From Serratia marcescens subsp. marcescens ATCC 13880 (GTDB lineage Bacteria; Pseudomonadota; Gammaproteobacteria; Enterobacterales; Enterobacteriaceae): a stretch of 64,000 nucleotides of DNA. Positions 25,984 to 51,098 of the stretch are shown here, piece after piece. The notes beneath the pieces are model-generated. The model searched no databases and was not told the DNA's origin. It worked only from the letters and a program-made list of their open reading frames with translations. The DNA lies in NCBI RefSeq assembly GCF_017299535.1, contig NZ_CP071238.1:496001-560000 (forward strand). The letters are read 5' to 3'. The first letter of the stretch is position 1. Each line of letters begins with the position of its first letter. A program made the translations under genes and the position numbers.

Positions 25984-26068
25984 GCCGAAGTGGCGAAATC
26001 GGTAGACGCAGTTGATTCAAAATCAACCGTAGAGATACGTGCCGGTTCGAGTCCGGCCTTCGGCACCA
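25984..26068 (+). tRNA. leuX: tRNA-Leu (anticodon CAA)
   Basis: 85 bases including encoded CCA. Acceptor arms GCCGAAG and CTTCGGC pair; the D-loop GGTAGACGC, the anticodon stem-loop GTTGATTCAAAATCAAC with anticodon CAA, the long class II variable arm and the T-loop GGTTCGAGTCC are all visible. It differs little from E. coli leuX. It reads UUG codons. Its 3' 20 bases serve as the attachment site for the satellite that follows, and integration has preserved a complete tRNA. Confidence 0.97.
26049..26068 (+). other. attL of the P4-type satellite
   Basis: 20 bp of the T-arm and acceptor 3' end of leuX including CCA, repeated exactly at 36428-36447. Confidence 0.93.
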
Positions 26069-27516: not shown

Positions 27517-27519
27517 ATG

Positions 27520-35831: not shown

Positions 35832-35844
35832 CGGTGAGCGGGTC

Positions 35845-36028: not shown

Positions 36029-36045
36029 GTGCCTGCGGTTCAGGC

Positions 36046-36371: not shown

Positions 36372-36427
36372 TAACCGTACTTTGTTTTTAACAATTTCAT
36401 ATTTTTCAATGTATTGCATGGTGATTT

Positions 36428-36447
36428 GAGTCCGGCCTTCGGCACCA
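36428..36447 (+). other. attR of satellite 1 / left junction of the second element
   Basis: Exact copy of the leuX 3' 20 bases. A second integrase gene of the same type starts 200 bp further, so this site probably also serves as the left attachment site of a second, tandem insertion. Confidence 0.9.
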
Positions 36448-36461
36448 AAAGCATGCAAATG

Positions 36462-36484: not shown

Positions 36485-36570
36485 ATGCCAAAAATCCGCG
36501 CCACACAAGGCTTTACCCGCTTTCCTCCTCAACTAAAGTCAACCTGGGTCAACCCACATCAACAAGCTTG

Positions 36571-36620
36571 TGAGTATACTAATGAGTATATTTGCCGATT
36601 CGATATTGCTTGTATACTCA
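36571..36620. repeat. TGAGTATA repeats before integrase 2
   Basis: TGAGTATACT at 36571, TGAGTATA at 36583 and inverted TGTATACTCA at 36611, with a further GATATACC at 36622. Candidate autoregulatory operator or arm sites of integrase 2. Confidence 0.55.
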
Positions 36621-36647
36621 CGATATACCTATGGAAGGAGGCCTATT

Positions 36648-37916
36648 ATGGCCCTAACGGATACTAAAGTTCGTTCTGCAAAACCTGAGGAGAAAGAGTA
36701 TTCACTTGTTGACGGCGACGGCATGTCCTTACTTGTAAAACCTAACGGCTCAAAGTATTGGCGATTTCGTTTCCGTTTTGGCGGTAAACAGCATTTGATG
36801 GCGTTCGGCGTTTACCCGAATGTTTCGCTGGCGGATGCCAGGAGGAAAAGGGAAGAAGCCAGAAAGCTGGTAGCTGCTGGTATCGATCCTCGTGAGCATA
36901 AACGTGCTGTGAAAGAAGAGCAGGCGAAAGAGATTATTACTTTCGAGAAGGTTGCCAGAGAGTGGCTCATTACCAATCAGAAATGGTCGGAAGATCATGC
37001 TAATCGCGTAAAAAAGAGCCTTGAGGACAATATCTTCCCGGCAATTGGCACTCGCAATATTACTGAACTGGGTACCCGCGATCTGTTAATTCCCATTAAA
37101 GCCGTAGAGACATCTGGACGTCTTGAAGTGGCTTCCCGTCTTCAACAGCGCACCACGGCCATCATGCGTTATGCAGTGCAAAGCGGGTTAATTGATTACA
37201 ACCCGGCGCAGGAGATGGCGGGGGCGGTTGCTTCCAGTAATCGACAGCATCGTCCGGCGCTGGAGTTAAAGCGTATCCCTGAGTTACTCCAGAAAATAGA
37301 TGGTTACACTGGCAGGCCGCTAACCCGTTGGGCAACGGAACTTACCCTGCTTATCTTTATTCGGTCCAGTGAGCTGCGTTTTGCTCGCTGGTCAGAGATC
37401 GATTTTGAAACGTCAATGTGGACCATCCCGCCAGAGCGAGAGCCTATTCCCGGCGTGAAACATTCTCAGCGAGGTTCAAAGATGCGTACACCGCATCTGG
37501 TGCCGCTTTCAAAGCAGGCGCTGGCGATTCTGAAGCAGATAAAACAGTTCTGTGGCGAACATGAGCTGATCTTTATTGGCGATCATGATCCGCGTAAGCC
37601 AATGAGTGAAAACACGGTAAACAGTGCGCTACGGGTGATGGGCTATGACACTAAAGTTGAGGTTTGCGGTCACGGCTTCCGCACAATGGCCTGTAGCTCG
37701 CTAATTGAGTCAGGACTATGGTCGAAGGATGCGGTGGAAAGGCAGATGAGCCATATGGAACGCAATTCGGTGCGGGCTGCATATATCCATAAAGCGGAAC
37801 ATCTGGACGAACGCAAGCTGATGTTGCAGTGGTGGGCGGATTTTCTGGATGCGAACCGGGAAAAAGGGATTACGCCGTTTGACTATGCGAAGATCAACCG
37901 GGGGAATGGAGAGTGA
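36648..37916 (+). CDS. int: P4-family tyrosine recombinase (integrase 2)
   Basis: 422 aa. Same domain plan as integrase 1: DUF4102-like N-terminus (MALTDTKVRSAKPEEKEYSL), core-binding domain with RLQQRTTAIMRYAV, and a catalytic domain with FIRSSELRFARWSE, CGHGFRTMA and Tyr in VRAAYIHKAEHLDERK. ATG 36648 has ribosome site GGAGG 7 bases upstream. The close similarity to integrase 1 and the leuX-derived repeat immediately upstream indicate the same target tRNA. It leads a region of restriction and SIR2 genes with no further satellite structural genes, so the second element is either degenerate or a defence island using a P4 integrase. Confidence 0.95.
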   Translation: MALTDTKVRSAKPEEKEYSLVDGDGMSLLVKPNGSKYWRFRFRFGGKQHLMAFGVYPNVSLADARRKREEARKLVAAGIDPREHKRAVKEEQAKEIITFEKVAREWLITNQKWSEDHANRVKKSLEDNIFPAIGTRNITELGTRDLLIPIKAVETSGRLEVASRLQQRTTAIMRYAVQSGLIDYNPAQEMAGAVASSNRQHRPALELKRIPELLQKIDGYTGRPLTRWATELTLLIFIRSSELRFARWSEIDFETSMWTIPPEREPIPGVKHSQRGSKMRTPHLVPLSKQALAILKQIKQFCGEHELIFIGDHDPRKPMSENTVNSALRVMGYDTKVEVCGHGFRTMACSSLIESGLWSKDAVERQMSHMERNSVRAAYIHKAEHLDERKLMLQWWADFLDANREKGITPFDYAKINRGNGE

Positions 37917-38312
37917 GTTGTTTAAAAGTGGACATGCGATCCTAAATTAAAAGCTGCTGATTTATCAAATGAGGAGTTGGTCGGTAGGGTCAAATAGACG
38001 AGTTTTCACTGAGGCAATACTTTCCATTGAGCCTAAGCGGCAGGAATGCGCCATGTAAGCCTAAATCTAAAGTCACGATTACTAGAAAACGGGAATGGGC
38101 TCTTGATTGGGCCCTACATCGTAACGAAGTTACAACAATTCGGCTATCATCAGGAGTGATAAGCTATTTATCAAGTTTTAATCTGATAACTAATTGAATC
38201 TTAAGGATTAGATTTCTTGCGTAAAATTGATAAATGTACTGGTGATGAAAGAAGCAATACCTTAATGTTATCGGTATAAAAAGGTTTGATTTCTTGTAAA
38301 GAGAGTATCAGT
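37917..38312. other. 396-bp gap without an intact gene
   Basis: AT-rich, stop-rich in all frames. Fragments such as a frame reading LKAADLSNEELVGRVK (about 37945-37995) suggest remains of a decayed gene, but nothing can be identified. The last 100 bp would hold the promoter of the SIR2 gene. Confidence 0.5.
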
Positions 38313-39146
38313 ATGAATTTTAAGAAAAAACTTGAAGAGCATTTTAAGCAGTTCGAAGCATCCCCAGTGTTATTTGTTGGCTCCGGAGTGTCTCGTCGTT
38401 ACCTTGGTGTGCCATGTTGGCAAGAACTTTTGAAGCATTTTGCTGAGGCTATTGGGGAAAATCATATAAAATTAAAAACAAAATCAAATGGTGACCTGCC
38501 CGAATATGCTCAATTATTGGTGTCGGCATATGCTGAGAAATGGTGGGATACTGAAGAAGGAAAATTAGCATTAAGTGAAAAAGAACAGGAGAAAACTTTC
38601 ATTAACGAACAGTCTCCTTTGAAGTTGTCAATATCTAAATATATTGAGAATGCACATGAAAATATTATAGATAATGATGAGTTAAAACACGAAATTTCTC
38701 TTTTTGCGAAAGCAAATATTGATGGGGTTATTACCACAAACTGGGATGTTTTTCTAGAAAGCCTTTTTCCTAAATTTACAACCTTTATAGGCCAGGATGG
38801 ATTGATTACTGGCAGGAGCCATGGTATTGCCGAAATATATAAAATACATGGTTGCTGCACTGAGCCTAACTCATTGATTTTAACATCAAGTGACTATGAT
38901 AAATATAGAAAGAAAAACCCTTACCTATCATCTAAGTTACTAACTATGTTTATAGAGAGGCCTGTTATTTTCTTAGGCTACTCTTTAACAGATGAACATA
39001 TAGCTGAAATCCTGGAAGATATAGTTAGTTGTTTTCCTGATGCCAGTTTGGATTTTTTACAGAATAAATTATTGTTTGTTGAATGGAAACCTGAACTTGC
39101 AGAGGCTGACATTAGTGACTCTGTTATTCATAAAAAATACCAGTAA
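38313..39146 (+). CDS. SIR2-domain defence protein, N-terminal part (frameshifted)
   Basis: 277 aa to the first stop. SIR2-like fold: nucleotide motif FVGSGVS (21-27), TTNWD with Asn143, KIHG with His179, and VIFLGYSLTDEHI (218-230). Such domains hydrolyse NAD+ in abortive-infection systems. The reading frame ends at a TAA right after an A6 tract (39132-39137). One extra A there would continue the frame through IPVKYVQAPSYKEIFEV into the ORF ending at 39901, giving about 529 aa. Thus this looks like one gene split by a 1-base deletion, or by -1 slippage on the A-run. AT-rich, unlike hsdM/hsdR next to it. ATG 38313 follows GAGAG. Confidence 0.8.
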   Translation: MNFKKKLEEHFKQFEASPVLFVGSGVSRRYLGVPCWQELLKHFAEAIGENHIKLKTKSNGDLPEYAQLLVSAYAEKWWDTEEGKLALSEKEQEKTFINEQSPLKLSISKYIENAHENIIDNDELKHEISLFAKANIDGVITTNWDVFLESLFPKFTTFIGQDGLITGRSHGIAEIYKIHGCCTEPNSLILTSSDYDKYRKKNPYLSSKLLTMFIERPVIFLGYSLTDEHIAEILEDIVSCFPDASLDFLQNKLLFVEWKPELAEADISDSVIHKKYQ

Positions 39147-39184
39147 AATATGTTCAAGCACCATCTTATAAAGAAATATTTGAG

Positions 39185-39901
39185 GTGCTGAGTGAAACTA
39201 AAAAAAGGATTCCAGCACATTTATTTCGAATGATAAAAGATGAGCTTTATGAGTTAGTCTTAACTGATGATCCGAAAGGAAAATTATATGTGAGGGATTC
39301 AGAGAAAATTGAAGAAGGGGTCAGTACAACGGAGTTTGTTGTGGGATATGGTGCTATTTCGATGGTAAAAAAATCGGAATCGATGGCAGCTAAAGGATTG
39401 GTTGGACTGGAACGTGTAGATCTTATCCGAGAAGTTGTATTTGAAAATGGACATTATGATTGGGAATGTGTTGTTAATGATGTTCTGCCAAATATATGTA
39501 AAGGCAATGCACGAATACCTGTTTTTCATTTCTTAAATCACGCTAATTTAATTAATCCCGATGGGAGTATAATTAATGAAACGGGACTCTCAGGTGGCGT
39601 TTTAACCCGATTACATATCACTCCTGTAAGTTTTCAGTCTCAAGGCTGGGATAAACGACGCTCTGAAACTGTTCCTGAAGTTAGAATTGGTGTCAATGAG
39701 TTATATCTTGCTCATGACTTCGGCTTTTTTTTAAGAATGATGCCATATATGGAACCGGGTTTAATCAAGCGTGATATGGACGAATTGCTTAAGATACTGA
39801 AAAAACATATTGATGAAGCGATGAGTATTCAAGCGTTATCAAGTAATTTTTGCAAATTAGTGTGTATTTATGATTATATTAAAAATAGTTACAGGTATTG
39901 A
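39185..39901 (+). CDS. C-terminal part of the frameshifted SIR2 protein
   Basis: 238 codons from a possible GTG at 39185, but the frame is open upstream to the A6 tract, with no good start of its own and no ribosome site. No known domain recognised (contains TTEFVVGYGAISMVKKSES and RIGVNELYLAHDFGFFLRMM). It is best read as the sensor or regulatory half of the SIR2 protein encoded from 38313. Convergent with hsdS. Confidence 0.7.
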   Translation: MLSETKKRIPAHLFRMIKDELYELVLTDDPKGKLYVRDSEKIEEGVSTTEFVVGYGAISMVKKSESMAAKGLVGLERVDLIREVVFENGHYDWECVVNDVLPNICKGNARIPVFHFLNHANLINPDGSIINETGLSGGVLTRLHITPVSFQSQGWDKRRSETVPEVRIGVNELYLAHDFGFFLRMMPYMEPGLIKRDMDELLKILKKHIDEAMSIQALSSNFCKLVCIYDYIKNSYRY

Positions 39902-39934
39902 GTAAAAGACAATCTCCTTAGAGGGAGAGATAAT

Positions 39935-39969
39935 AAGTAATGGCGTTACCTAAGGATAACGCCTTACTT
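39935..39969. terminator. Long inverted repeat between convergent SIR2 and hsdS genes
   Basis: AAGTAATGGCGTTA-CCTAAGG-ATAACGCCTTACTT with one internal mismatch pair; lies between the two stop codons and can terminate both strands. Confidence 0.75.
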
Positions 39970-40025
39970 GTCTAAAATATGTTCATTTCATCTAATAAAT
40001 TGATGTTCATTTCGATATAAAGGGT

Positions 40026-41165
40026 TTAAAAATCCATTAATCTCTTCTGTAGTGATAAAAATTGAGTTTCTAAATAATTCGATGATATTTCTATTTTTTC
40101 TTTAATTTTTTCAATTTTAGCTAATCTAGCAAGTATTTCATCTTGATAGTATAGAGGAGGAAGAGGTACATTAAAATTGTTTAATAGTTCAAGGTTTACG
40201 CCGGTTTGCCCCGCTGTTCTTTCAGAGTTTTTTACAACGACATCATGATATTCCGGAAGTTGTAGAAGATAAAATATAAATCCCTTTCTAATATTTTCTT
40301 TAGGTGAAGCTTTCATTAAAGCTACATTGTAGCTACCGGATAAACCTCTAAGTATTTGAAACACAGGTGGTCCATAACGGGCAATCATAACATCATCAAC
40401 TTCGAAAATACGCTTTGCTTTTTCTTGCGGAATATAAGTTGCATATTTATCGGATTTAAAATCTCTAATTTGCACTAACCTAATATAACCCTGTTGAGCT
40501 TCAAAAATAAAATCACTTTTAGGTGGTTGATTTCCACCTTTAAATTCAATAATATCTCCCATAAGATGGACAGGCCATTTTTTAGGATTTTTGATAGGAT
40601 TCCCATACATTGTAGAAAATGTAGATCGAATAAGAGTATTTATAAGTTCAATAACTTTCTTGCGCTTTCGTATTACTGTATTTACTCTTCCAAGAATGGT
40701 TGCAATACGTTTTTGTTCTTTCATTGGTGGAACAGGTACTTTTAATCCCCGAAGAAAAGGGAGAGTAATACCTTTGACAGTAGCCCCTTTTCCTTCATTC
40801 TCAATAAAACCACTTTGAGATTGTAACCATCCAAAGAGATATTCTCTATCAATGACGTCATGATCTTTAATTAAAAGTGCTTTTATATCTTGATTTATTG
40901 CAACATCAATAGTATTGATTGCTACCTTACCTAATGCCATTCGTGTAGGGATTAATATATTACCAGCAGCGATAATATTCGTAGCAGAGTTCTTTAGACC
41001 GAGGTGTGTGATTGAATCAATGGTAGAGTCAATAGTATTTTTTTTGAAATCCTTGACTGAAGCCCATGGGATTTCACCGTTCCAATATTCAGAGTTACTT
41101 TTCTCAGGAGTACCGCCACCTTTTATATCAACAAGGTCTCCTAATGAAATCATCTGCCAACTCAC
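40026..41165 (-). CDS. hsdS: Type I restriction-modification specificity subunit
   Basis: 379 aa. Sets the DNA target of the HsdM methyltransferase and HsdR nuclease. Two target-recognition domains: the first starts SLGDLVDIKGGGTPEKSN and is followed by the conserved helix KEQKRIATILGRVNTVI; the second starts WPVHLMGDIIEFKGGNQPP and ends with YYQDEILARLAKIEKIKE. The half-repeat structure predicts a bipartite target sequence. It overlaps hsdM by 4 bases. Its sequence is much richer in A/T than hsdM and hsdR, so the specificity gene seems to have been exchanged separately. Confidence 0.95.
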   Translation of the reverse strand: MSWQMISLGDLVDIKGGGTPEKSNSEYWNGEIPWASVKDFKKNTIDSTIDSITHLGLKNSATNIIAAGNILIPTRMALGKVAINTIDVAINQDIKALLIKDHDVIDREYLFGWLQSQSGFIENEGKGATVKGITLPFLRGLKVPVPPMKEQKRIATILGRVNTVIRKRKKVIELINTLIRSTFSTMYGNPIKNPKKWPVHLMGDIIEFKGGNQPPKSDFIFEAQQGYIRLVQIRDFKSDKYATYIPQEKAKRIFEVDDVMIARYGPPVFQILRGLSGSYNVALMKASPKENIRKGFIFYLLQLPEYHDVVVKNSERTAGQTGVNLELLNNFNVPLPPLYYQDEILARLAKIEKIKEKIEISSNYLETQFLSLQKRLMDF

Positions 41166-42796
41166 AGCATATCCTCCAAGTCATCCAAATCCGCCAGAAT
41201 CTCTTTCTCAAGGTCCTTCAGCCGCTTCAGTATCACCTTCGGATCTTCATACTCCTCCGCCTGATACACCACTTCTTTATAACGATTGATAGAGAGATCG
41301 TATTTTTGCGCAGCAATATCTGCTTTCGGCACCACAAACGCCGACTGAGTGCGGTCTTTAAAATCAACGCCAGCATCAATTCCTTCCGGGTACTGCTGCT
41401 TCAGCAACGAAGCAAATTTATCGCCCATGAAGTTATCAACGGGTAGTCCGCGTAATGCACGGTACTGCTTCCAGCTTGCCAGCAGATGCGGAAGATCGTT
41501 GTCTTTTATCGGGTTACGCTTGTCATCAAGGCTGTAGCCGTCATTTTGTAGATCGTAGAACCAGACCTCATCCGTCTGGCCGCCTTTGGTAAAGATCAGG
41601 ATCGCCGTTGCCACGCCAGCGTAAGGCTTAAATACACCGGAAGGCAGGTTGATCACCGCTTCCAGTTGGTTATCTTCCACCAGCGTTTTACGCAGCGACT
41701 GGTGCGCCTTACTGGAACCAAACAATACGCCCTGCGGCACGATAGTGGCACTGCGTCCGCCAACTTTCAGCATTTGCAGAATGCGCGCCAGGAACAGCAG
41801 CTCAGTTTTCTTGGTTTTCACCATCGCCGACAGCGTGGCGTCGATATCTTCCTCATCCAGTGAACCAGTAAACGGCGGGTTCGCCAGAATCAGGTTGAAT
41901 GCGTTTTTACTGGCCTGAGGGAAATTGGTGCTGAAGCTTTGGCTCATGGTGTCCTGATAGTGAATATCCGGCTCTTCCACTCCGTGCATAATCAGGTTCA
42001 TGGCGGCAATACGCAGCATGGTGGTATCAAAGTCGTAACCGTGGAACATGTTGTTATCCACATGGTCACGCCACGGCGTCAGCAGATCGCCGGTAAAGAT
42101 TTTTTGCTCTTCTAATTCGCCGCGTTCGTTGGTGCCAATTTCGGTATGAATGGACTCCAGCGAGCTGTATTTTTCCAGCAGGTACTCATAGCTGGTCGCC
42201 AGAAAACCGCCTGTACCACAGGCCGGATCGCAGATCGTTTCACCACGTGCCGGGTTTGGCTCCATCATTTCAACCATTGTGCGGATAATGTGGCGTGGCG
42301 TGCGGAACTGACCGTTAATCCCGGCAGTAGTCAGCTTGCTTAACAGGTATTCGTAGAGATCGCCTTTGGTGTCGCCACGATCCAGCGGCAGGTTTTTGAT
42401 CACCTCGACGGCTTTGGTCAGCAGTGACGGTTTAACAATCTCCAGGCGAGCATCTTTCATAAAGTTGCCCAGCAGCGTCACTTTCGTATCTTCAGCTTGT
42501 CCAAGCTGACGGAAATGCTGGAATACGCCGTCGCGCACTACTTCCATCATCTCGTCCGAGCCAAGGTTGCTGTAGTGGCTGAACCGGAACTCCTGCTGCT
42601 CAGGTGCAAAGCGTGGTTTAAAATCAACGCCTGCAATTTGCTTACGCTTCTCGTCCCGTTGTTCCTGGGTATCCAGCATCCTGGAGTACATCAGGTAGGT
42701 GATTTGTTCGATTACGGTCAGCGGGTTAGTGATGCCACCCACCCAGAAATCTTCCCATAGTCCGTCGATTTTACTTTTTAAGTCACCAGTAATCAT
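41162..42796 (-). CDS. hsdM: Type I restriction-modification DNA methyltransferase subunit
   Basis: 544 aa. SAM-dependent N6-adenine methyltransferase working with HsdS. Helical N-terminal domain, SAM motif I as [17 protein letters not shown], and catalytic motif IV NPPF in [11 protein letters not shown]. The C-terminus ends with a coiled-coil-like stretch ([23 protein letters not shown]), which usually contacts HsdS. Probably co-transcribed with hsdS; separated from hsdR by a terminator. Confidence 0.97.
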
Positions 42797-42825
42797 TGTT
42801 AACGTCTATACCCTGTTATAAATAC

Positions 42826-42848
42826 AAAAGCCCCGCTGCCGGGGCTTG
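42826..42848 (-). terminator. Intrinsic terminator between hsdR and hsdM
   Basis: Minus strand AAGCCCCG-GCAG-CGGGGCTTTTG, 12 bases after the hsdR stop. Implies hsdR and hsdMS are expressed from different promoters, which would allow methylation before restriction. Confidence 0.85.
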
Positions 42849-42859
42849 TCATGTGCGTA

Positions 42860-45800
42860 TTATACCGTCGCTACGTCGGTCACAACACCCAACTCTTCGA
42901 CTATCTTTTGCAACCGGGCGATCTGCTCTATGTCTGGGAAAACACCAGTAACACCTTCGTTGTGGATGTGTGTAAACGGCTGTTCAAAGAGCTGTCGCAT
43001 TTCAATGGTGCCGTAATCGCGGATGTGGTTTTTCAGCAATGACAGGAAACGCAGTTGCTGGCTAGTCAGACTGTTGTCAGCGGCGAACTGTGCAAAACGT
43101 ACTTCTACCGCGTCGCTGTCCATCCCGATAATGGTACGCAAAAGTTTATCCAGGCTTGCGGTTGCCTGCGGGTAGAACTCTTTTAGCGCTCGGATATCAA
43201 CGTTGGGGTTTTGGATCAGTACCAGTTTTGCCAACTCATCCAGTTCACCTTGTGTTACCGGATCGCCGTTGCGGATTTTTTTCAGTACCGGATTTTGCTG
43301 AAACAGGGGCTCCAACGCTCCTTGAACCTGCTGACGATAGAGTTTGAAATCAATCGAGCGGATATTGGTTTTGCGGGTCTCCGTCTGGATCAGGTTCGCA
43401 TCTTCGGTAATATCCACCTGTATCGAACCAAATTTCGGCGTCGCGTCTTTTTCCATCAGGTGCATGATGCCGCGCAAATGAATGCGGATATCCTCCAGTT
43501 CTTCCAGGCTGGCTTGCTTCCACCAGCCTAAATCACGAAGTTGATTAATCCGTTGTCCTTGCTGTTGCACCTGAGTCAGATGCGGCGGCAGACGTTCCAC
43601 TTTCTCGATGATGACCGGCCAGAGCACATCAAGCTCTTCCGGGTTGGTATAACGGGCAGTTTGCGCCGCCAGAATATCCATATCAAAGCGCATGGCATCG
43701 CTTTGCCCGCGAACATCCAGCCACTGCGTCAGCGGGGCCAGGACAGATAGCAGATCCTGCTGTGTTTTCGGGGAAAGCTGGCGCAGCACTTTTTCATCGC
43801 TGTACTGCGCTTTTTGCTGCCACTTCTCCTGTACGGCAATCGACTTTTCATCCAGCGCGTTGATCTGCTCGCGGAGCTGGTGAGCGACTAAATCCACCGC
43901 CTGTTTGTCGAACTTACGCTGTGCAGCAGCCCCCAGCCTAACCCACGCTTCGAAGCGTTTTTGCGCCAGCGATTTTGTCGCTGTGACTTCGGCTTCTTCG
44001 GTATGCAGCTCGTGATACTCAAAATTGCCCCAGTGATCGAAGATGCGGAATTTTTGTTTATCCAGCGGTTTGCCGTTGTCATCGTAGCCGTACAGCCCCG
44101 CGCAGAGGCGCGTACCACGGCCAATCATCTGCCAGAACTTCACTTTCGATTTGACCGGCTTGGCAAAGACCAGATTCACAATTTCCGGGACATCAATACC
44201 GGTATCGAGCATGTCAACAGAGATAGCGATGGTTAGCTCTTTGTTAGTGCTTTCATCCAGCCCTTTAAAATCGTCGATCAGTTGCTCGGCGCGAGGATCG
44301 TAGTTGTCGATGACCTGACAGAAGCGTCCAGCAAACTGCGGGTACATGTCGTCGAACAATTCATTCAACAGCAGCGCGTGTTTGTGGTTACGGGCGAAAA
44401 TGATGGTTTTACCGGGCAACTGGCCGTCCTGATCTTTCAGGCCATTTTCCATCAGGTTACGCAGAATATAGCGGTTAGTATCTTTGTTATAAATTGCTTC
44501 ATCAAGCGCCTTGCCGTCAAATTCCAGCGTATTGGGATCGATACCCTGTTCTTCCAGCTCGCGGATTTGAGCGTCGCTTAATCTCTCCCGTTTTATGCCT
44601 TCGCGCAGGAATTCTGTGGTATGCGTGACAACCTCATAGGGAACCAGATTGTTATCGGCGATGGCATCTTCCAGGCTGTAGTTGGCGGTAGGGATACGTC
44701 CTTCACAACCAAACAGGCCGAAAGTAGTTTTACTCACCATGTCGATCGGCGTGGCCGTCAGGCCAATCTGGAGGGCATCAAAATACTTAAACAGATCGCC
44801 GTAGACGTTGTAGATAGAGCGGTGGGATTCATCGGCGATGATCAGATCGAAATAACCGACATCGAAATTGTCCATGATTTTCATCATGCCAGGATAGGTA
44901 GCGATGTAGATCCTGGCATTCTGCGTGTCTGCTTTCTTCGATTTCCCGACCACATACAGCGGCTCATTGGTGAACTGATTGAAGGCATTTGCTGCCTGTT
45001 TACGTAACTCTTTGCGGTCACAAAGAAACAGGACTCGTTTTACCCAGCGAGCATCAATCATCAGTTTGCTTAGCGCAATCGCTACACGGGTTTTGCCTGT
45101 ACCAGTAGCCTGAACGATTAACGATTGTCGGTACTTGTTAGTAAACCGTTCGCTGACGCGGGCAATGGTTTCAAGCTGATACAAACGTCCAGCAACGGCC
45201 TTACCTTCGTTGTCTTTTACATGCGGCACACTGTTCAGTGGCAGACGGGTTTCACGCTGTTGAATAAGATATTGCAGGCTTTCCTTGCTGTAGAAACCAA
45301 ATACTCGACGCGGGGGATAACCATGAGTTTTATGGTCGTCCCACAGCCAGATATCGTAGCCGTTGGTGTAGAAGATGACCGGACGCTGACCATATTCTTT
45401 TTCCAACCAGTCGGCATACAATCGAGCCTGAATTCGTCCTTGCTCGGCATTGAAGCTGGTTTTTTTTGCTTCCACCACCGCCAGCGGTTTATGCGCCTCA
45501 TCCCACAAGACATAATCCGCATAACCGTCACCGGTTGCAGTAGGTTGTTCTTTAACGGGATGTTCCTGCGTAACCTGATCGGTATTATTAAGCTCTTCCC
45601 CTACATTCCAGTCGGCGGCAAGCAGGCGGGAGTCAATCAGGCGACGGCGGGTTTCCGCTTCATCAATAGATAGGATATCGGCAACATGCTGGTTGCGAGC
45701 TCTGGCTTCATTCAGGCGCTGAGTAAGGTGTTCGGCCTTTTCCTGCTCTTGCTGTAGTGCGCGTTGTAACGCGAGTTCGCGCTCACGGCTTTCATCTTGA

Positions 45801-46273
45801 GCCCTGATTGCATCTTCCAGACGTTTATCATCTGCACGACCTGAAGATTGCGTTAACGGAGGAAGAGAAAATTTGGGGCAGTCATCAACATTACCGTGGG
45901 CGTAGCGAACATACAGCCAGATCCCTAATAAATAAGCTTCCTTAAGCAGCCAGTAGGTATCTTTGGCTTTGATACGTCCACCGTGCGCGGCGCGGTTGCC
46001 GTGGATACGCAGCGCATCCATTTTCATGATGATGGCTTCTGGCATCATGCTGGTGAAGACATCGGCGTTCATTAAATCATACAGATTTGCCTTGATGCCT
46101 TCAGGTAGCCGTTCCTGACGATATAACCAACGCACCATCAATTCGGTGTAGTTGCGTAGCTTAACCAGACTGCTTTCCGGGTCGGTGTGAACGTAACGTT
46201 CCGCCATACACGCGAGTTCTGCCAGTTCCGGCCACTGGCTGCGCAACATTTCAAAATTGAGAGACTGCTCCAT
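42860..46273 (-). CDS. hsdR: Type I restriction enzyme restriction/translocation subunit
   Basis: 1137 aa. N-terminal DUF4145-like region (MEQSLNFEMLRSQWPELAEL), a coiled coil around residues 155-195 (RERELALQRALQQEQEKAEH), then the nuclease domain with VVEAKK (PD-(D/E)XK lysine motif), and the superfamily 2 motor: Walker A QATGTGKTRVAIAL, DEAD-box variant ADESHRS, LTATP and QMIGRGTRL. It cuts unmethylated DNA after ATP-driven translocation. The architecture resembles EcoEI-type HsdR. ATG 46273 chosen; a TTG at 46276 is one codon upstream. Encoded upstream of hsdM on the same strand, behind its own promoter. Confidence 0.96.
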   Translation of the reverse strand: MEQSLNFEMLRSQWPELAELACMAERYVHTDPESSLVKLRNYTELMVRWLYRQERLPEGIKANLYDLMNADVFTSMMPEAIIMKMDALRIHGNRAAHGGRIKAKDTYWLLKEAYLLGIWLYVRYAHGNVDDCPKFSLPPLTQSSGRADDKRLEDAIRAQDESRERELALQRALQQEQEKAEHLTQRLNEARARNQHVADILSIDEAETRRRLIDSRLLAADWNVGEELNNTDQVTQEHPVKEQPTATGDGYADYVLWDEAHKPLAVVEAKKTSFNAEQGRIQARLYADWLEKEYGQRPVIFYTNGYDIWLWDDHKTHGYPPRRVFGFYSKESLQYLIQQRETRLPLNSVPHVKDNEGKAVAGRLYQLETIARVSERFTNKYRQSLIVQATGTGKTRVAIALSKLMIDARWVKRVLFLCDRKELRKQAANAFNQFTNEPLYVVGKSKKADTQNARIYIATYPGMMKIMDNFDVGYFDLIIADESHRSIYNVYGDLFKYFDALQIGLTATPIDMVSKTTFGLFGCEGRIPTANYSLEDAIADNNLVPYEVVTHTTEFLREGIKRERLSDAQIRELEEQGIDPNTLEFDGKALDEAIYNKDTNRYILRNLMENGLKDQDGQLPGKTIIFARNHKHALLLNELFDDMYPQFAGRFCQVIDNYDPRAEQLIDDFKGLDESTNKELTIAISVDMLDTGIDVPEIVNLVFAKPVKSKVKFWQMIGRGTRLCAGLYGYDDNGKPLDKQKFRIFDHWGNFEYHELHTEEAEVTATKSLAQKRFEAWVRLGAAAQRKFDKQAVDLVAHQLREQINALDEKSIAVQEKWQQKAQYSDEKVLRQLSPKTQQDLLSVLAPLTQWLDVRGQSDAMRFDMDILAAQTARYTNPEELDVLWPVIIEKVERLPPHLTQVQQQGQRINQLRDLGWWKQASLEELEDIRIHLRGIMHLMEKDATPKFGSIQVDITEDANLIQTETRKTNIRSIDFKLYRQQVQGALEPLFQQNPVLKKIRNGDPVTQGELDELAKLVLIQNPNVDIRALKEFYPQATASLDKLLRTIIGMDSDAVEVRFAQFAADNSLTSQQLRFLSLLKNHIRDYGTIEMRQLFEQPFTHIHNEGVTGVFPDIEQIARLQKIVEELGVVTDVATV

Positions 46274-46445
46274 CAATCATCGCCTTATATCGTGGATACA
46301 ACAGCATTTCTGGAAAGGATATCACATTACTTTTGGCAGCAAAGCGAGAGGGAGTCATAGCTGATGCATCCTAAGACAAATAGATGACTGCTGATCATTT
46401 TATTAGTCTCCAAAGCAATTCTTTATTTGAGATTGGACGCACTTA

Positions 46446-47363
46446 CTACTGATCAAAATAATCACTATCTAACTTTGGTACTTTGACCAAAGTCGAACTA
46501 ACACCCACCTCGTTGTCCATCATTAGATACACCAGTCGGTTACCGTCGATAAGTACCATGCCTTCTACCGATTGCGCGTAAGCAACTGCATGTTTGGTAA
46601 AGCCAGATGTCGTGATGAATATCCCTCGTTTAGCCTTTTGTCCCACAAGTGCACCGTAGAAGGCATGCAACTCAGGGCGGCCTACGGTGTTTTGCCAGCG
46701 TTTGGCTTGTACATACACTTTTTCTAAGCCGAGCTTGTCTAAAGAAATTACGCCATCAATCCCCGCATCACCGCTGCCTCCGACACGCTTTAAATCATCG
46801 CGGTGGCCGCCGTAGCCTAAACGGTGCAGTACATCCAGCACGATAACTTCGAAGCGGCCTGGGGATACCTGGCTAAGGTTCTCCAGCAGTTCCGTTGCTA
46901 CCGCATCGCGGATCTCTTTGATTGATTGTTCCAGGCGATCGTCTGGGCTATTTGTTAACATCGCTTCGGTGAGAAGGGGTTCTGTAACCGGGTCCAAATC
47001 TACCGCATCACTATTTTGTTGAAGTTTGACGTTGGTATAAGCCAAAGCGAGATGCTCGACTTCTGCTGCAGTGAGCGGGTTTGGATGCTGCTTTAACCAG
47101 TCGATGCCTTTGGCGGTTAAGCACCATTTGCCTCTGGATAAGCTGTGCGAGAGCCCAGCACGTTTCAAACGATCGTGAGCCCAGCCGGTACGGTTCTTAT
47201 AAACCAATTGGCCGCTGGCAATGGTCTCTGCCCGTTGTTCTTCGTTTAGGTTGAGTATGTCTGCTGCTGCATCTTGCACATCTCTAGCAAGTGCGCCTTC
47301 GGGCTTGGTTGCCAAAAAGCGAAGCACTGGCTCGATGAATTGGTCGTAGGTAGGTACTGACAT
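46446..47363 (-). CDS. mrr: Mrr-type restriction endonuclease
   Basis: 305 aa. N-terminal winged-helix Mrr_N domain (MSVPTYDQFIEPVLRFLA) and C-terminal Mrr_cat PD-(D/E)XK nuclease with GSGDAGIDGVI and VQAKRW supplying the Asp and Gln-x-Lys. Type IV enzyme that attacks modified DNA or is activated by foreign methyltransferases, as E. coli Mrr. Full length. Neighbouring hsdR and the HNH gene are on the same strand; the 172-bp gap upstream of hsdR suggests separate transcription. Confidence 0.95.
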   Translation of the reverse strand: MSVPTYDQFIEPVLRFLATKPEGALARDVQDAAADILNLNEEQRAETIASGQLVYKNRTGWAHDRLKRAGLSHSLSRGKWCLTAKGIDWLKQHPNPLTAAEVEHLALAYTNVKLQQNSDAVDLDPVTEPLLTEAMLTNSPDDRLEQSIKEIRDAVATELLENLSQVSPGRFEVIVLDVLHRLGYGGHRDDLKRVGGSGDAGIDGVISLDKLGLEKVYVQAKRWQNTVGRPELHAFYGALVGQKAKRGIFITTSGFTKHAVAYAQSVEGMVLIDGNRLVYLMMDNEVGVSSTLVKVPKLDSDYFDQ

Positions 47364-47454
47364 GCTGAGGTTCCCTGTTATTCTTTATTATTCCTATGAT
47401 ACTGCACAAACCCGGTTTTGAAGTTGACAGGTAGCACGCTGTTGTCGGCAACTT

Positions 47455-47703
47455 TTAACCGATAGCGGCCTCTTTCATCTCCAACTTCACCATCAGCTGC
47501 TTGTTCACCTCTTTCCCATCCACCCCGCTGTGAATCCGCCGATGGCAAGTCGGGCAGATGGCGCCCACCCACTGCGGGTGATCGGGGCCTTCGTCGGCTA
47601 AGCGTTTGGTGTGGTGAGGTTCGAGGTAGGGCTCGCCGTTCCTTTTCTTGAACGGTGCCGGCTGGTCGCAGGCTTCGCAGATGCCATTGGCGCGCTTGAG
47701 CAC
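47455..47703 (-). CDS. HNH nuclease domain, C-terminal part of a frameshifted McrA-like gene
   Basis: 82 codons from MLKRANGICEACDQPAPF; zinc Cys in CEAC and CPTC, and the ββα-metal HNH in LEPHHTKRL and CHRRIH. It lacks its own ribosome site and is open upstream to the poly-T tract at 47707-47712 (A6 in the mRNA). With one extra A the upstream ORF would read SEDVKKYVLKRANGIC and join this frame, giving a roughly 374-aa protein. So this is the nuclease half of the gene starting at 48578. Confidence 0.75.
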   Translation of the reverse strand: MLKRANGICEACDQPAPFKKRNGEPYLEPHHTKRLADEGPDHPQWVGAICPTCHRRIHSGVDGKEVNKQLMVKLEMKEAAIG

Positions 47704-48578
47704 GTATTTTTTACGTCTTCGCTGCGTTTGAACCAGGATTTTTTGCTGTCGCTCTGTTGGCGCTGGCCCGATTGCTTTGAGGACTGCAGTGCCTTCTTGC
47801 GTAACTGTTCGAGCGTTTCTGTCTGCGTATCGGCTTCATCGGTGTCTGCATCTTCTTCAACCGCGTGCAGTGACGAGACTTTGAACAGGTTAAAGGTAAT
47901 GCCTTGGCGCATGTTATTTTCTAAGTCTAAGCACTGAATATGATCCCAAGAATCACACTCGAACATGCCAAGATAGCGAACGCCTTTTTCTTTCTTGTTG
48001 TCTTCGAACAGGAAGATGTCTTTGCCATCTTTTTTATGGTCGCGGATGGATTTATTACCTCGAATAAATTCCATATCGCCTTTTTGGCCTTCCCCCGTAT
48101 AAGAGAAGCTGCCTTCGGCTGTCCATCCATCTTTGTAGCCGTAGGTTTCGCCGCTTTCTCCGGTGAAGATAAAGATTACCGGGAATTCCCGCGGGGTCCA
48201 GATACCGCCTTGCAACTGCCCGCCGTAGAGCTCGATAAGCGCTTTGCGTGTGTATAGTTTGCCTTCGGTTAAATAGTCAAAAGGATGTGGCGTTTCGACG
48301 ATCTCAAAACCGAGCTCTTTGAGAAATTGGATGGCTTTTTCTGTTCCGCTATCGGCGTTGATTCCCTTAAACGGATAGCCATGCTGCTCACTGTATGCTC
48401 TAGCGGCAATGCCTCGGATGTCGTACTTCTCGCCATTATAATGAAGGGTGTATTTTTTAAATCGTTTTATTTCATGTTGTTTTAAGAATTCATCTCGGCC
48501 AAGTTTTTTATATTCTTCGATGGCTTTTAAAACGGATTCTTTTGAAGATAACGCCTCTATTGCAGTTGCCAAAACCAC
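47598..48578 (-). CDS. McrA/ScoMcrA-like type IV restriction protein, SRA-like part (frameshifted before HNH domain)
   Basis: Starts at GTG 48578 (TTG 48572 is an alternative after GAGGGAG). The N-terminal about 90 residues (YKKLGRDEFLKQH, YDIRGIAARAYSEQHGYPF) are followed by an SRA-like module containing FIFTGESGETYGYKDGW, FSYTGEGQKGDMEF and GNKSIRDHKKDGKDIFLF, which resembles the modified-base-binding SRA-like domain of ScoMcrA. The last about 37 residues after VKN (codons from about 47705) are out-of-frame nonsense overlapping the HNH reading frame. Intact, it would recognise modified (5-methylcytosine or phosphorothioate) DNA and cut through HNH. Beside mrr it forms a pair of modification-dependent restriction genes. 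Confidence 0.72.
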   Translation of the reverse strand: MVLATAIEALSSKESVLKAIEEYKKLGRDEFLKQHEIKRFKKYTLHYNGEKYDIRGIAARAYSEQHGYPFKGINADSGTEKAIQFLKELGFEIVETPHPFDYLTEGKLYTRKALIELYGGQLQGGIWTPREFPVIFIFTGESGETYGYKDGWTAEGSFSYTGEGQKGDMEFIRGNKSIRDHKKDGKDIFLFEDNKKEKGVRYLGMFECDSWDHIQCLDLENNMRQGITFNLFKVSSLHAVEEDADTDEADTQTETLEQLRKKALQSSKQSGQRQQSDSKKSWFKRSEDVKNTCSSAPMASAKPATSRHRSRKGTASPTSNLTTPNA

Positions 48579-48801
48579 TCCCTCATATTACCGAGTAGGC
48601 TCTGGGCAATGTGCTTGCTGACGAGAGCAGTATGCATCAATACCCAGCAGTTAACTCATCGATTTACCGAATGCGTTAACTATGCCAGGTAGGGGAGGAA
48701 ATGCCTACCTTGATGAATGCTTTTGTTGTGATATGTCAGTCAGATCTATTGGAAATCGTGGGTGGGAAGGGCGATGAGCATCGCCCTGATTGCCATTTAC
48801 G

Positions 48802-49110
48802 TTAGCCGCAGGCTTCCATCTCCCGCAACGCCCGCCCATAAAGGTTACACAACGCAGGAACCAGATGCGCTGTAGCGTTGAGGTAGCGATTCAGCTTTTC
48901 CCAGCCTTCAGCGTCCAGTTGTGGGTGCTTTTGTAGTAAATGGCCGAACAGCATCAGCCCGTGGCACAGCCCTTCAGCCTGCTCGGCAGAGAGGGCGGCC
49001 AGGTCTAAGAGTTCTGAAGGGTTAAAAGCGCTGAGATCGAGGTGGTTAAACAGTTGGCGATAAAGGGTGAGGGTACTTGTGGTGAACTCGGTGGTAATGA
49101 CATTTTCCAT
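48802..49110 (-). CDS. Hypothetical 102-aa protein downstream of a C4/Ash-type leader
   Basis: MENVITTEFTTSTLTLYRQLFNHLDL; predicted all-helical with LAALSAEQAEGLCHGLMLFGHLLQ, no recognised family. Start ATG 49110 follows AAGGATAAAGAC. It occupies the place of the Icd-like gene relative to the antisense leader, so it is probably the first gene of a satellite-type operon, but alpha and the other backbone genes are missing. The gap 48579-48801 contains nothing recognisable. Confidence 0.7.
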   Translation of the reverse strand: MENVITTEFTTSTLTLYRQLFNHLDLSAFNPSELLDLAALSAEQAEGLCHGLMLFGHLLQKHPQLDAEGWEKLNRYLNATAHLVPALCNLYGRALREMEACG

Positions 49111-49247
49111 GTGTCTTTATCCTTAGTGTGTAGTATGTGTACTACCACATGAGACGCTAAACCCATGGTGGTAGCCCAAGCGGAGTTAGCGTTACCGGAC
49201 ACGAAGGAAACCGGCGCTTCTTGCGAAGCCCCCACTTGGGCCACCAT
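49005..49247 (-). CDS. Possible Ash-family leader ORF overlapping the 102-aa gene
   Basis: 80 codons, MVAQVGASQEAPVSFVSGNANSAWATTMGLAS at the start (only the first 40-odd codons look conserved), resembling the Ash family of P4-like leaders. The rest overlaps 48802-49110 in another frame. It also contains the antisense target 49182-49202. It may be a translated leader rather than a functional protein. Confidence 0.4.
   Translation of the reverse strand: MVAQVGASQEAPVSFVSGNANSAWATTMGLASHVVVHILHTKDKDTWKMSLPPSSPQVPSPFIANCLTTSISALLTLQNS
49182..49202 (-). promoter_or_regulatory. Target of the C4-type antisense RNA (second element)
   Basis: Transcript GTGTCCGGTAACGCTAACTCC; complementary to the antisense GGAGTTAGCGTTCCGAACAC at 49320-49301 with 19 paired bases, one mismatch and one bulged base. 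Confidence 0.72.
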
Positions 49248-49269
49248 AATTCTGGATGTTTAAAGCCCC

Positions 49270-49341
49270 AACATTATATACATAATGCTGCCTTGTGTAA
49301 GTGTTCGGAACGCTAACTCCGGCTGCGGATTTTTCCGCAGC
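49270..49341 (-). ncRNA. C4/CI-type antisense RNA (second element)
   Basis: Minus strand: -10 TATAGT at 49353-49348, then hairpin CTGCGG-AAAAA-TCCGCAG (about 49340-49322), antisense segment GGAGTTAGCGTTCCGAACAC (49320-49301). Layout equals the satellite 1 RNA (TATAGT, CTGC hairpin ending GCAGCCGG, antisense). A CATTAT/ATAATG hairpin (about 49290-49275) could end it, without a T-run, so the 3' end is a guess. Confidence 0.65.
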
Positions 49342-49353
49342 AGAAAAACTATA

Positions 49354-49625
49354 GCGTTATCAGTAAAAGTAAAAAATAAGCTGTATGGAATTACAGTTTG
49401 TTTGCTTTCAGCATTGGAATACAGATCGCAGTTATTTATGGTGCTCTTTTATATTTGTAATGTTGTCTATATATAGTGAATATAATTCATGACATTCCAT
49501 TCTCTAAATGAATGTTATGCTCAGTAATCCTCTATTCGCGCTACGAAGTGTTAACCGTTCCAGTATTTATCCTTTCTAGAGCTTATGCTAATCATACGGC
49601 TTTGCTAATTCACGGATGAACGAAC
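49354..49625. other. AT-rich intergenic region
   Basis: No gene. Holds the divergent promoter regions of the C4-type RNA (left) and of the toxin gene (right). Confidence 0.5.
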
Positions 49626-50453
49626 ATGGCGAATGAAGATGAGTTGCGTATTGCCTTGTCGCCAGTGCAGCTTGCGGCGGTACTGTCTGATGAAAGCGTC
49701 ACTGAAGGTGAAACGTTCAGTAACCGTCTGCTTGGCGGTTTGGGGCTTGCCGGTGGTGTCGTTGAGCTGATGGGGGCGGGGGTGTTGTGCTATGCGCCGG
49801 ATCCGACGTTTATCACCAAAGTCGGGTGTGTGGTGGTGGGAACGCATAGCCTGGACAGCATCAAAGCCGCTTCCAATCAGATGATTACCGGGCATCCAAC
49901 AACTACCGATACTTATCAGTCTGCCGTTTTATTGGCGCAAACATTAGGTGCCGATCGGGAAACGGCCTATAACGTCGGTTTAACGGTCGATATTGCCGTG
50001 CCTTTAGTCTTTGCCGGAGCGGTTGGCGCTGCCAGAGTCGCATCCGTGCGCATGGGGCGGGTAAAGCTGGTTGAGCATGAGTCCGTTAGCGGTAAATATC
50101 CGGGCGGGCACACATTGGCTCGGCATATAAACATAGCTCCGGAAGCGCTTATTGCCAGGCTAGCCAGGCGCCCGAAACTGATCGCAGCAAGCACCTTCAG
50201 ATCGGTAAAGGAGGCCGAAAAGTATGTATCTGTCACGCTAAAGGCGAACCGTGCAGATATTATGAATTGGGTAAAGTACGCATCTCCCGGCAGCCGTTTG
50301 AGCGTGTATCATAATTTTTCAGAGTCAGTAGGTTACGGCGTATTGCGCGGCAACACTGACGTTTATCAATGTCATCGGGTTGGCGTCGTGATTGAGTTTA
50401 CCCGCTATAATGGCAAACCTTACTTTATCCTTAGCGCTTTCCCTGCGAGATAA
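49626..50453 (+). CDS. RNase A-like (CdiA-CT type) toxin, stand-alone
   Basis: 275 aa. Residues 1-145 contain two hydrophobic stretches (LLGGLGLAGGVVELMGAGVLCY about 35-56 and VDIAVPLVFAGAVGAARVA 121-139) and no secretion signal. From about 155 it matches the bacterial RNase A-like toxin domain known from CdiA C-termini: GGHTLARHI with His162 and His167, AASTFRSVKEAEKYV (188-201) and the terminal RYNGKPYFILSAFP (260-273). It should cut RNA. No CdiA, VgrG, Rhs or PAAR part is attached and none lies nearby, so the delivery route is unknown (type VI cargo is possible). Followed 4 bases later by the immunity genes. Confidence 0.78.
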   Translation: MANEDELRIALSPVQLAAVLSDESVTEGETFSNRLLGGLGLAGGVVELMGAGVLCYAPDPTFITKVGCVVVGTHSLDSIKAASNQMITGHPTTTDTYQSAVLLAQTLGADRETAYNVGLTVDIAVPLVFAGAVGAARVASVRMGRVKLVEHESVSGKYPGGHTLARHINIAPEALIARLARRPKLIAASTFRSVKEAEKYVSVTLKANRADIMNWVKYASPGSRLSVYHNFSESVGYGVLRGNTDVYQCHRVGVVIEFTRYNGKPYFILSAFPAR

Positions 50454-50457
50454 GCCG

Positions 50458-50745
50458 ATGAAAACCAGCGAACTTGATAACCTGATCGTTGTTTATTTTG
50501 GTCAAGATTATGACTTGATAAATGCAGAGGGCGATATTACTGCGCTGATAGCAGAGTACATTCGTCTGGCGACTCATCAGCAGCGCGAGGCTTTGATCGA
50601 GGAGATAGATGCGTTATTGGCGCAGGATAATGTGGAGTCCTTATTCAACCAACGTTTCGGCTTTACCTTCAGCCCGGAGCTATGGGGAACCACCGTTCCC
50701 GCATTCCTGCAACAGGCCAGAAACGCTGCGGTTAAAGCGCTTTGA
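50458..50745 (+). CDS. CdiI-type immunity protein 1
   Basis: 95 aa, MKTSELDNLIVVYFGQDYDLINAEGD. Small acidic protein placed directly after the toxin, with the FGQDYDL and SPELWGTTVPAFL motifs shared with the next gene. Expected to bind and neutralise the RNase A-like domain. ATG 50458 is the first after the toxin stop; a longer in-frame start lies inside the toxin gene. Confidence 0.78.
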   Translation: MKTSELDNLIVVYFGQDYDLINAEGDITALIAEYIRLATHQQREALIEEIDALLAQDNVESLFNQRFGFTFSPELWGTTVPAFLQQARNAAVKAL

Positions 50746-51074
50746 GCACTATCGTGATTCGCAATCACTTCAGCGAGCTCAGTAGCTTATTCAGTATCTA
50801 CTTCGGTCAGGATTATGATCTGTTTACTGATGCCGAAACGGCCGAAGGTGTGATTGACGGCTTCCTGGAGCAAAACGGCACTCAAGTCATCCGCGATATC
50901 CTCGAGGAGACTAAAGAGTTTCAGGCTACTTATGCAGGGCGTATAAACGAAGGTATGGCGGAGCATTTTTCAGATGAATTTATGCCGGAGAGCTGGGGTA
51001 CTACAGCGGTAGCGTTCTTTACCATGTTGCAACGAAAAGCAGAGCAAAAGCTGGGGCAGCTTAAACGAATTTAA
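50742..51074 (+). CDS. CdiI-type immunity protein 2 (paralogue)
   Basis: 110 aa from TTG 50742, which overlaps the previous stop (TTGA); GTG 50754 (IRNHFSEL) is an alternative. Shares IYFGQDYDLF and MPESWGTTAVAFF with immunity protein 1, so it is a diverged duplicate. It may protect against a related but different toxin variant, or be orphan immunity retained from a previous toxin. Confidence 0.75.
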   Translation: MSTIVIRNHFSELSSLFSIYFGQDYDLFTDAETAEGVIDGFLEQNGTQVIRDILEETKEFQATYAGRINEGMAEHFSDEFMPESWGTTAVAFFTMLQRKAEQKLGQLKRI

Positions 51075-51098
51075 GCCCCCCAACCCCACCGCCCAAAC

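What the first reader, a model, noticed from the sequence alone, without database searches (positions are those of the whole stretch)
49182..49353. Second, independently specific C4-type antisense leader
The leader at 49.2-49.35 kb has the same plan as that of satellite 1 (TATAGT, CTGC hairpin, antisense segment, downstream target), but its antisense/target pair (GGAGTTAGCGTTCCGAACAC against GTGTCCGGTAACGCTAACTCC, 19 pairs) is different in sequence. Two satellites in one tRNA with different immunity specificities would be heteroimmune, explaining how both coexist in tandem.
Basis: partly seen in the sequence, partly recalled or inferred. Interest (0 to 1): 0.7.

Follow-up and report, generated by a model that had tools for sequence, protein, structure and literature searches.

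The report
Swappable antisense switch at island edge
Beside a hypervariable tRNA island, Serratia bacteria keep a small antisense-RNA switch that appears to silence one small gene, and its recognition sequence comes in three interchangeable versions shared between species; it is not the immunity region of a second phage satellite, as first thought.

Summary
The 49.2-49.35 kb feature is real: a C4 antisense RNA (Rfam RF01695, 76 bits) on the minus strand with its target-like leader upstream. Box by box its specificity differs from satellite 1, though crude whole-stretch energies do not separate the two downstream. It is not part of a second satellite: no match to other satellite-1 hallmark genes was found around it. 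The full unit occurs in 22 of 30 Serratia genomes; in 19 of these it is linked to leuX at the far side of an island whose content differs (3 are on split contigs). Antisense loop, leader target and ribosome-site target change together. Three specificity classes occur at this locus in both main species groups: the ~200-bp cassette is 89% identical within a class across groups but 56% between classes within a group, while the flanks follow the species. So C4 specificity is an allelic, recombining, trans-species polymorphism. Function of the 102-aa protein and expression are untested.

The parts
49381..49396 (.). dyad CTGT-N8-ACAG (LexA-box-like operator or activator site), 27 nt upstream of the leader -10
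   Evidence: present in 21 of 22 orthologues, 27 nt from the -10 in 20 by script and in G011 by eye; the only CTGTN8ACAG in the 64-kb window. Likeness to LexA boxes is recalled, not tested
49348..49353 (-). TATAGT, presumed -10 of the leader promoter
   Evidence: sequence; orthologues; no good -35, transcription not shown
49322..49341 (-). leader hairpin GCTGCGG/CCGCAGC (c4-a1b1/isrK-like)
   Evidence: RF03163 41.1 bits and RF01394 39.7 bits, both under their cut-offs
49309..49320 (-). target a1 (GGAGTTAGCGTT), pairs with a' of C4
49291..49298 (-). target b1 (ACACAAGG), pairs with the C4 loop b' with a bulge
   Evidence: sequence; weak ungapped score
49273..49301 (-). internal sigma-70-like promoter CTTACA-17-TATAAT just upstream of C4
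   Evidence: 10 of 12 consensus matches; 6 promoter-like sites found in the 1-kb region, both strands, against 1.7 +/- 1.4 in shuffles; not shown to work
49164..49251 (-). C4 antisense RNA
   Evidence: Rfam RF01695 76.1 bits, cut-off 45
49199..49210 (-). antisense loop b' (TTTCCTTCGTGT), class I
49182..49193 (-). antisense arm a' (AACGCTAACTCC)
49154..49160 (-). target a2 (TTAGCGT)
49120..49129 (-). target b2 (ACACTAAGGA) over the Shine-Dalgarno of the 102-aa gene
   Evidence: one mismatch to b'
48802..49110 (-). 102-aa helical protein P0001, the presumed C4-silenced effector
   Evidence: mean pN/pS 0.19 over 231 pairs; AlphaFold2 pLDDT 84.5
47598..48578 (-). 326-aa ORF (phrog_15103; weak type IV restriction N-terminus) often next to the unit; context only
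36425..36447 (+). second copy of the leuX 3' end, right att-like end of satellite 1; context
25984..26068 (+). tRNA-Leu (CAA), leuX, other edge of the island; context

Best explanation
The feature is a complete C4 antisense switch that silences the 102-aa gene behind it, and it is a resident of the far edge of the leuX island, not the immunity region of a satellite. Steps shown by sequence: (1) C4 has two recognition boxes, a' and b'. (2) Both have complements in the leader (a1, b1) and again downstream (a2, b2), b2 lying on the ribosome-binding site. (3) b', b1 and b2 change in concert among genomes. (4) At this one locus there are three specificity classes that swap as a cassette of about 200 bp between conserved flanks and occur in both main species groups. 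Steps inferred: C4 is made steadily (perhaps from its own promoter at 49301-49273) and matures from the leader transcript. It pairs with new transcripts at a1/b1 and a2/b2 and blocks transcription or translation of the effector. The effector is released when the dyad-controlled outer promoter fires (perhaps in the SOS response) or when the matching C4 is missing, for instance when the unit enters or recombines into a cell of another class. The effector is most likely an Icd-like growth inhibitor or a small antirepressor, judged only from what other C4 RNAs precede. Keeping several classes suggests selection for rare or non-matching specificities.
For: C4 family match. Boxes and targets in 22 leuX-edge orthologues, 5 paralogues and 2 units of another genus. 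Self-pairing beats re-paired partners for b1, b2, a1 and a2: 0 of 20000 permutations each, 19 representative units; self ranks first for b1 in 16, b2 in 15, a1 in 14 and a2 in 12 of 19. Gene found in 23 of 30 genomes of the genus, own included, 22 with C4 and 1 truncated without. leuX lies in the fetched stretch in 10 of the 21 other full-unit genomes, and LptG, upstream of leuX, on the same contig and on the expected side in 8 more. Cassette identity: same class/other group 89.1%, other class/same group 55.5%; gene body 73.9% and 81.4%. Class changes: at least 8 on the LptG tree and 10 on the gene-body tree, where 2 would do for three classes. Two genomes with 99.2% identical LptG carry different classes, with sharp cassette borders. 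Purifying selection on the gene.
Against: No transcript, processing or repression was measured. Loop/b2 pairing has an inner mismatch in 6 of 22 orthologues: the window, G003, G002, G010, G025, G028. In the window b1 pairs only with a bulge, and self is only second for b1, b2 and a1. Whole-stretch energies do not separate own from satellite targets downstream. The a boxes of the three classes are almost the same, so a' does not tell the classes apart. G024 lost the unit but kept its neighbours, and G012 lacks it, so it is dispensable. The unit lies in island space, so 'resident' may mean an old island module. Cassette sharing between species could be recurrent transfer instead of long-kept polymorphism. 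Function of the protein is a guess; no fold match at E 0.001.
Confidence: 0.73

Rival explanations
1. One reading: immunity region of a second, heteroimmune P4-like satellite in leuX.
For: Second integrase at 36570-37916 behind an att-like repeat; C4 plan and different a and b1 boxes.
Against: No match to satellite-1 alpha, AlpA, Psu or Icd-like gene in 36448-51098; no third copy of the tRNA end in the window; C4 points toward the integrase; the unit recurs in relatives with other island content.
Confidence: 0.04
2. Island-edge addiction module: C4 is the RNA antitoxin, the 102-aa protein a growth inhibitor, and the pair stabilises the leuX and selC islands; classes differ so that one module cannot neutralise another.
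For: Same unit, same inward direction, near two tRNA hotspots: leuX, and tRNA-Sec in 4 of 5 paralogue loci. In satellite 1 the gene right behind C4 is an Icd-like division inhibitor by NCBIfam; in P1 Icd blocks cell division (PMC8198154, passages). Swapped specificities.
Against: Toxicity untested; P0001 itself matches no NCBIfam model; soluble three-helix model without a fold match.
Confidence: 0.35
3. SOS-linked antirepressor: the 102-aa protein inactivates repressors of co-resident prophages or satellites, with C4 as the brake, as for P1 Ant.
For: In a prophage-like region of G022 four C4 units each precede a Rha-type phage regulator. CTGT-N8-ACAG dyad in 21 of 22. Gifsy antirepressors are small and LexA-controlled (PMC3121763, abstract and passages).
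Against: No family match that names an antirepressor; the dyad lies just upstream of where the -35 should be, an odd place for LexA repression; LexA binding untested.
Confidence: 0.28
4. Decayed remnant of an old satellite or prophage without present function.
For: Found in an island region; mismatched b2 in 6 of 22; lost in some genomes.
Against: pN/pS 0.19, no pair with pN above pS; concerted change of three sites; conserved dyad.
Confidence: 0.08

Closest known systems
C4 RNA of phages P1 and P7 (Citron & Schuster 1990, recalled; summarised in PMC12197685 and PMC8198154, passages)
   Same: Same RNA family and two-box logic, with a target around the ribosome-binding site of the controlled gene; differing specificities that make relatives heteroimmune
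   Different: Chromosomal island edge, not a phage; the controlled gene is an unrelated 102-aa protein; three classes segregate at one locus in several species
C4 (CI) region of P4-like satellites (satellite 1 at 32.4-35.8 kb; satellites in L104-L107)
   Same: Leader target, C4, then the controlled gene; matched b', b1, b2
   Different: Satellite C4 precedes an Icd-like gene (NF033153), orf87, DUF5375 and alpha; none of these follows this C4; other a boxes
Gifsy-1 isrK-orf45-anrP (PMC4825925, passages)
   Same: isrK-type leader ahead of a translationally controlled gene
   Different: The passages describe control of antirepressor AnrP by IsrK inside a prophage, not C4; this unit is under the isrK cut-off (39.7 of 50)
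Type I toxin-antitoxin modules (general knowledge)
   Same: Small RNA that may block translation of a neighbouring small gene
   Different: Same-strand RNA from the leader, not a convergent antisense transcript; protein not a membrane peptide; toxicity unknown

Membership tests
C4 antisense RNA (Rfam RF01695) | covariance-model score at or above 45 bits | tested here: met
   76.1 bits, full model 1-87
C4 antisense RNA (functional) | a' and b' complementary to leader and to the ribosome-binding site of the next gene | tested here: met
   the window allele has one b2 mismatch and a bulged b1
C4 antisense RNA (functional) | maturation by RNase P and repression in trans (recalled) | not testable with these tools
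   needs RNA work
c4-a1b1 leader (RF03163) | score at or above 46.7 bits | tested here: not met
   41.1 bits at the right place
isrK (RF01394) | score at or above 50 bits | tested here: not met
   39.7 bits
P4-like satellite (components as listed in PMC8628076, passages) | integrase | tested here: met
   36570-37916
P4-like satellite | alpha, AlpA, Psu | tested here: not met
   no tblastn match at E 0.01 in 36448-51098 with satellite-1 queries; none among the Pfam hits of the 10 ORFs
P4-like satellite | epsilon, which that paper finds with PF10554 | tested here: inconclusive
   ORF 49005-49247 matches PF10554 with 33.2 bits over 33 of 107 positions, but the match lies on the C4 DNA itself; no Icd-like gene
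P4-like satellite | delta and Sid | tested here: inconclusive
   no delta hit in the 10 ORFs; no Sid profile at hand; small ORFs not all scanned
Type I toxin-antitoxin | protein toxic unless the RNA is present | not testable with these tools
   -
SOS regulon | LexA binds the dyad | not testable with these tools
   CTGT-N8-ACAG in 21 of 22; consensus recalled

The most novel reading that the evidence does not exclude
A host-resident antisense incompatibility system: Serratia keeps at least three old, mutually mismatched C4 alleles at the edge of its leuX integration hotspot, and related units near selC. Cells or incoming DNA of different class are distinguished because the effector is released when no matching C4 is present, so selection keeps several classes across species.
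Probability: 0.35. Interest if true: 0.82.

Novelty: new variant of a known kind. Interest (0 to 1): 0.62.

Why it matters
C4 RNAs are known from phages, phage-plasmids and satellites, where their specificity decides which relatives can share a cell. Here the same device guards a small gene at a fixed chromosomal place, and its recognition sequence behaves like a multi-allelic specificity locus that recombines as a cassette and is shared between species. Close relatives that differ mainly in the cassette give ready-made natural swaps, so C4 specificity and the reason for its diversity can be tested directly.

Tried and rejected
Second satellite: rejected for want of satellite genes and because the unit recurs at the island edge in relatives. 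P0001 as a relative of the satellite genes orf87, Icd-like, DUF5375 or orf81: a P0001 profile run without filters on the 9276 ORFs of the loci held at that time gave, above E 1e-8, nothing better than 0.47 (hits below 1e-8 were not printed and are taken as its own family). My first reading of the satellite gene behind C4 as 'Ash/epsilon' was wrong: PF10554 matches the translated leader and C4 DNA, and the 63-aa gene itself matches only the Icd-like model among Pfam and NCBIfam; this moved the odds slightly from antirepressor to growth inhibitor. Whole-stretch duplex energies: the GC-rich leader hairpin dominates for leaders, and downstream they fail to separate own from foreign for the 49-kb C4; I relied on box scores and say so. 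Source of the cassettes in mobile DNA: no exact match to class-specific patterns or to the a1 pattern in IMG/VR; 10 phage and 60 plasmid records with partial C4 likeness, none covering 80% of the query; tblastn of P0001 found no phage or plasmid. Fold search: 169 PDB and 301 BFVD hits at E up to 10, none at 0.001. Statistics: one genome per species, so frequencies within species are unknown; on the LptG tree of 22 rows 56 of 1000 shuffles reach 8 or fewer class changes, so a weak tie of class to phylogeny is not excluded. Rows dropped: one search uses 4 of the 22 leuX units and 2 of the 5 paralogues as representatives; one search used 15 units and gave self first in 13 (b1), 11 (b2), 14 (a1) and 13 (a2) of 15, permutations 0 of 20000 each. 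In one search the leader start of two rows (G011, G019) was set 7 and 2 bases early by my pattern, which shifts their segments slightly.

Full report
WHAT IS THERE. On the minus strand from 49396 to 48802 lies one compact unit: dyad CTGTAATTCCATACAG, TATAGT, hairpin, target a1, target b1, C4 RNA with loop b' and arm a', target a2, target b2 over the ribosome-binding site, and a 102-aa gene. Rfam calls the C4 with 76.1 bits (cut-off 45). The leader models c4-a1b1 and isrK match in the right place but under their cut-offs (41.1 of 46.7 and 39.7 of 50). A sigma-70-like promoter (10 of 12) sits between a1 and C4, so C4 may have a promoter of its own, as a P1 paper mentions for c4 (PMC8198154, passages); here this is inference.

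SATELLITE 1 AND ELEMENT 2. Satellite 1 is a P4-like element in leuX: integrase, SIR2-STAND gene, Psu-like, AlpA, C4, Icd-like gene, orf87, DUF5375 and alpha, ended by a second copy of the tRNA 3' end at 36425-36447. Behind it come a second integrase, a split SIR2 gene, a type I restriction operon and an Mrr protein, but no match to satellite-1 alpha, AlpA, Psu or Icd-like gene up to 51098 and no third copy of the tRNA end in the window. The C4 unit at 49 kb reads toward that integrase, the reverse of satellite 1.

GENUS-WIDE ORTHOLOGY. The 102-aa protein is found in 24 of 60 genomes, own included, and in 23 of 30 genomes of the genus, own included. The nine loci that carry record names are all Serratia. 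One of the 23 (G013) is truncated and has no C4 beside it; the other 22 have the full unit. The 7 without it are G001, G005, G008, G012, G017, G020 and G024, three of them (G005, G008, G017) small genomes of 1.5-2.5 Mb. Linkage to leuX: in the window; in 10 of the 21 others leuX lies within the fetched stretch; in 8 more LptG, which precedes leuX, is on the same contig and on the expected side, at most about 90 kb away; in 3 (G015, G019, G029) it is on another contig. Between leuX and the unit the content differs among genomes. On the outer side 17 of the 21 show genes of the window's 49.5-63 kb part; in 4 (G003, G016, G018, G028) the short outer piece fetched had no match. G012 has a different island and no unit; G024 has the neighbours but lost the unit. 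Five genomes carry a paralogue (34-38% identical) with its own C4; in 4 of these 5 a tRNA-Sec gene lies in the fetched stretch and the C4 points toward it, the same inward plan. In a sample of 394 genomes of the order only 5, own included, have the protein; of the 5 places in the other 4 genomes 2 have C4 upstream by Rfam, 3 do not.

CONCERTED CHANGE. For 19 representative units (5 satellites, 4 prophage-like modules of G022, 4 leuX units, 2 paralogues, 4 units of other genera) I scored the best ungapped pairing of loop with b1 and b2, and of arm with a1 and a2. Mean self score against mean other score: b1 19.1 and 10.4, b2 22.3 and 12.4, a1 21.1 and 12.9, a2 17.9 and 12.7; in 20000 permutations of partners none reached the observed sum for any of the four. 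The units are related, so this is not a strict probability. Self ranks first in 16, 15, 14 and 12 of 19. The window's own unit is second for b1, b2 and a1: its loop has a mismatch to b2 and pairs b1 with a bulge. Six of the 22 orthologues have an inner loop/b2 mismatch.

THREE CLASSES AT ONE LOCUS. At the leuX edge there are three loop classes: I in 6, II in 9, III in 7 of 22 genomes. Class I b2 is ACACTAAGG, class II GACATAYGG, class III CCCAATGG; a1 is nearly constant. Cassette identity is 94.4% for same group and class, 55.5% for same group and other class, 89.1% for other group and same class, and 56.2% for both different. For the gene body the four values are 83.7, 81.4, 73.9 and 72.9, and for the promoter 63.6, 63.4, 54.1 and 52.9. 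The groups are 10 S. marcescens-like genomes (four share contig lengths with records of S. nevei, marcescens, bockelmannii and ureilytica) and the 12 others; the LptG tree puts the 10 in one supported clade, while the 12 are not all one clade. Within each class the cassette tree separates the two groups in the main, which argues for old classes, not one recent sweep. The fewest class changes are 8 on the LptG tree and 10 on the gene-body tree. G010 and G029, 99.2% identical in LptG, are class II and I: identity per 30 columns is 83-100% in the promoter, 100% in the leader up to the end of a1, 47-83% in the cassette, and 80-100% again over the gene body.

THE GENE. The protein is under purifying selection (78 codons, 231 pairs: mean pS 0.591, pN 0.113; no pair with pN above pS). 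AlphaFold2 gives three helices, mean pLDDT 84.5, pTM 0.71, from a shallow alignment of 10; two of the five models scored above 83 and three under 53. No Pfam family, no NCBIfam model, one weak PHROG of unknown function (E 1.4e-5), no PADLOC family, no fold match at E 0.001. Its function is inferred only from what stands behind other C4 RNAs: Icd and Ant in P1 (PMC8198154, passages), an Icd-like gene in satellite 1, Rha-type regulators in G022.

HETEROIMMUNITY. The own genome has 6 C4 loci. The five other than the 49-kb unit lie among satellite genes, and each has its own combination of a and b boxes: sat1 and satB share b, sat1 and satC share a, satA and satD share a. Between satellite 1 and the 49-kb unit the a1 and b1 boxes separate clearly, a2 and b2 less, and whole-stretch downstream energies not at all for the 49-kb C4.

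PRINT. Ten searches of the held library (some long lists were shown only in part) gave no listed paper whose title or abstract start deals with C4 RNA in Serratia chromosomes. The one paper that holds both 'C4 antisense RNA' and 'Serratia' is on Acinetobacter (PMC6978653, search listing only). The survey of P4-like satellites (PMC8628076, passages) does not hold the word antisense. Most subscription papers are not held, so absence from print is not claimed.

Noticed in passing
L103 6752-9509 (G022:C2, minus strand): Four tandem leader-C4 modules about 850 bp apart, each ahead of a Rha-type regulator (PF09669); each C4 loop matches its own leader and ribosome-site target, four different b specificities in a row.
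   Followed up: partly
window 32409-32703 and 49005-49247: Pfam PF10554 (Ash) matches the translated leader and C4 DNA, not the gene behind it; a survey that uses PF10554 to find satellite epsilon (PMC8628076) may be detecting C4 loci.
   Followed up: partly
L104-L107 and window 25984-36447: Five P4-like satellites in one genome, each with a different C4 box combination.
   Followed up: partly
window 38286-39901: SIR2 defence gene (PADLOC PDC-S25) is split into two ORFs that match successive parts of one family model, so it looks broken.
   Followed up: no
window 47598-48578: 326-aa ORF: in several relatives the last ~37 residues match in a separate piece and frame, so the gene may be broken in some genomes.
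   Followed up: no
window 49626-51074: CdiA-CT RNase A-type toxin domain followed by two CdiI_2 immunity genes, just outside the C4 promoter and pointing away; present beside the unit in some relatives only.
   Followed up: no
L099 10043-12476 (G032): Two tandem C4 plus P0001-like units 2 kb apart with nearly the same proteins but different b specificities.
   Followed up: partly
L135, L136, L137: P0001 relatives in other genera without a C4 call; L135 keeps a CTGT-N8-ACAG dyad and leader-like sequence but has no C4.
   Followed up: no
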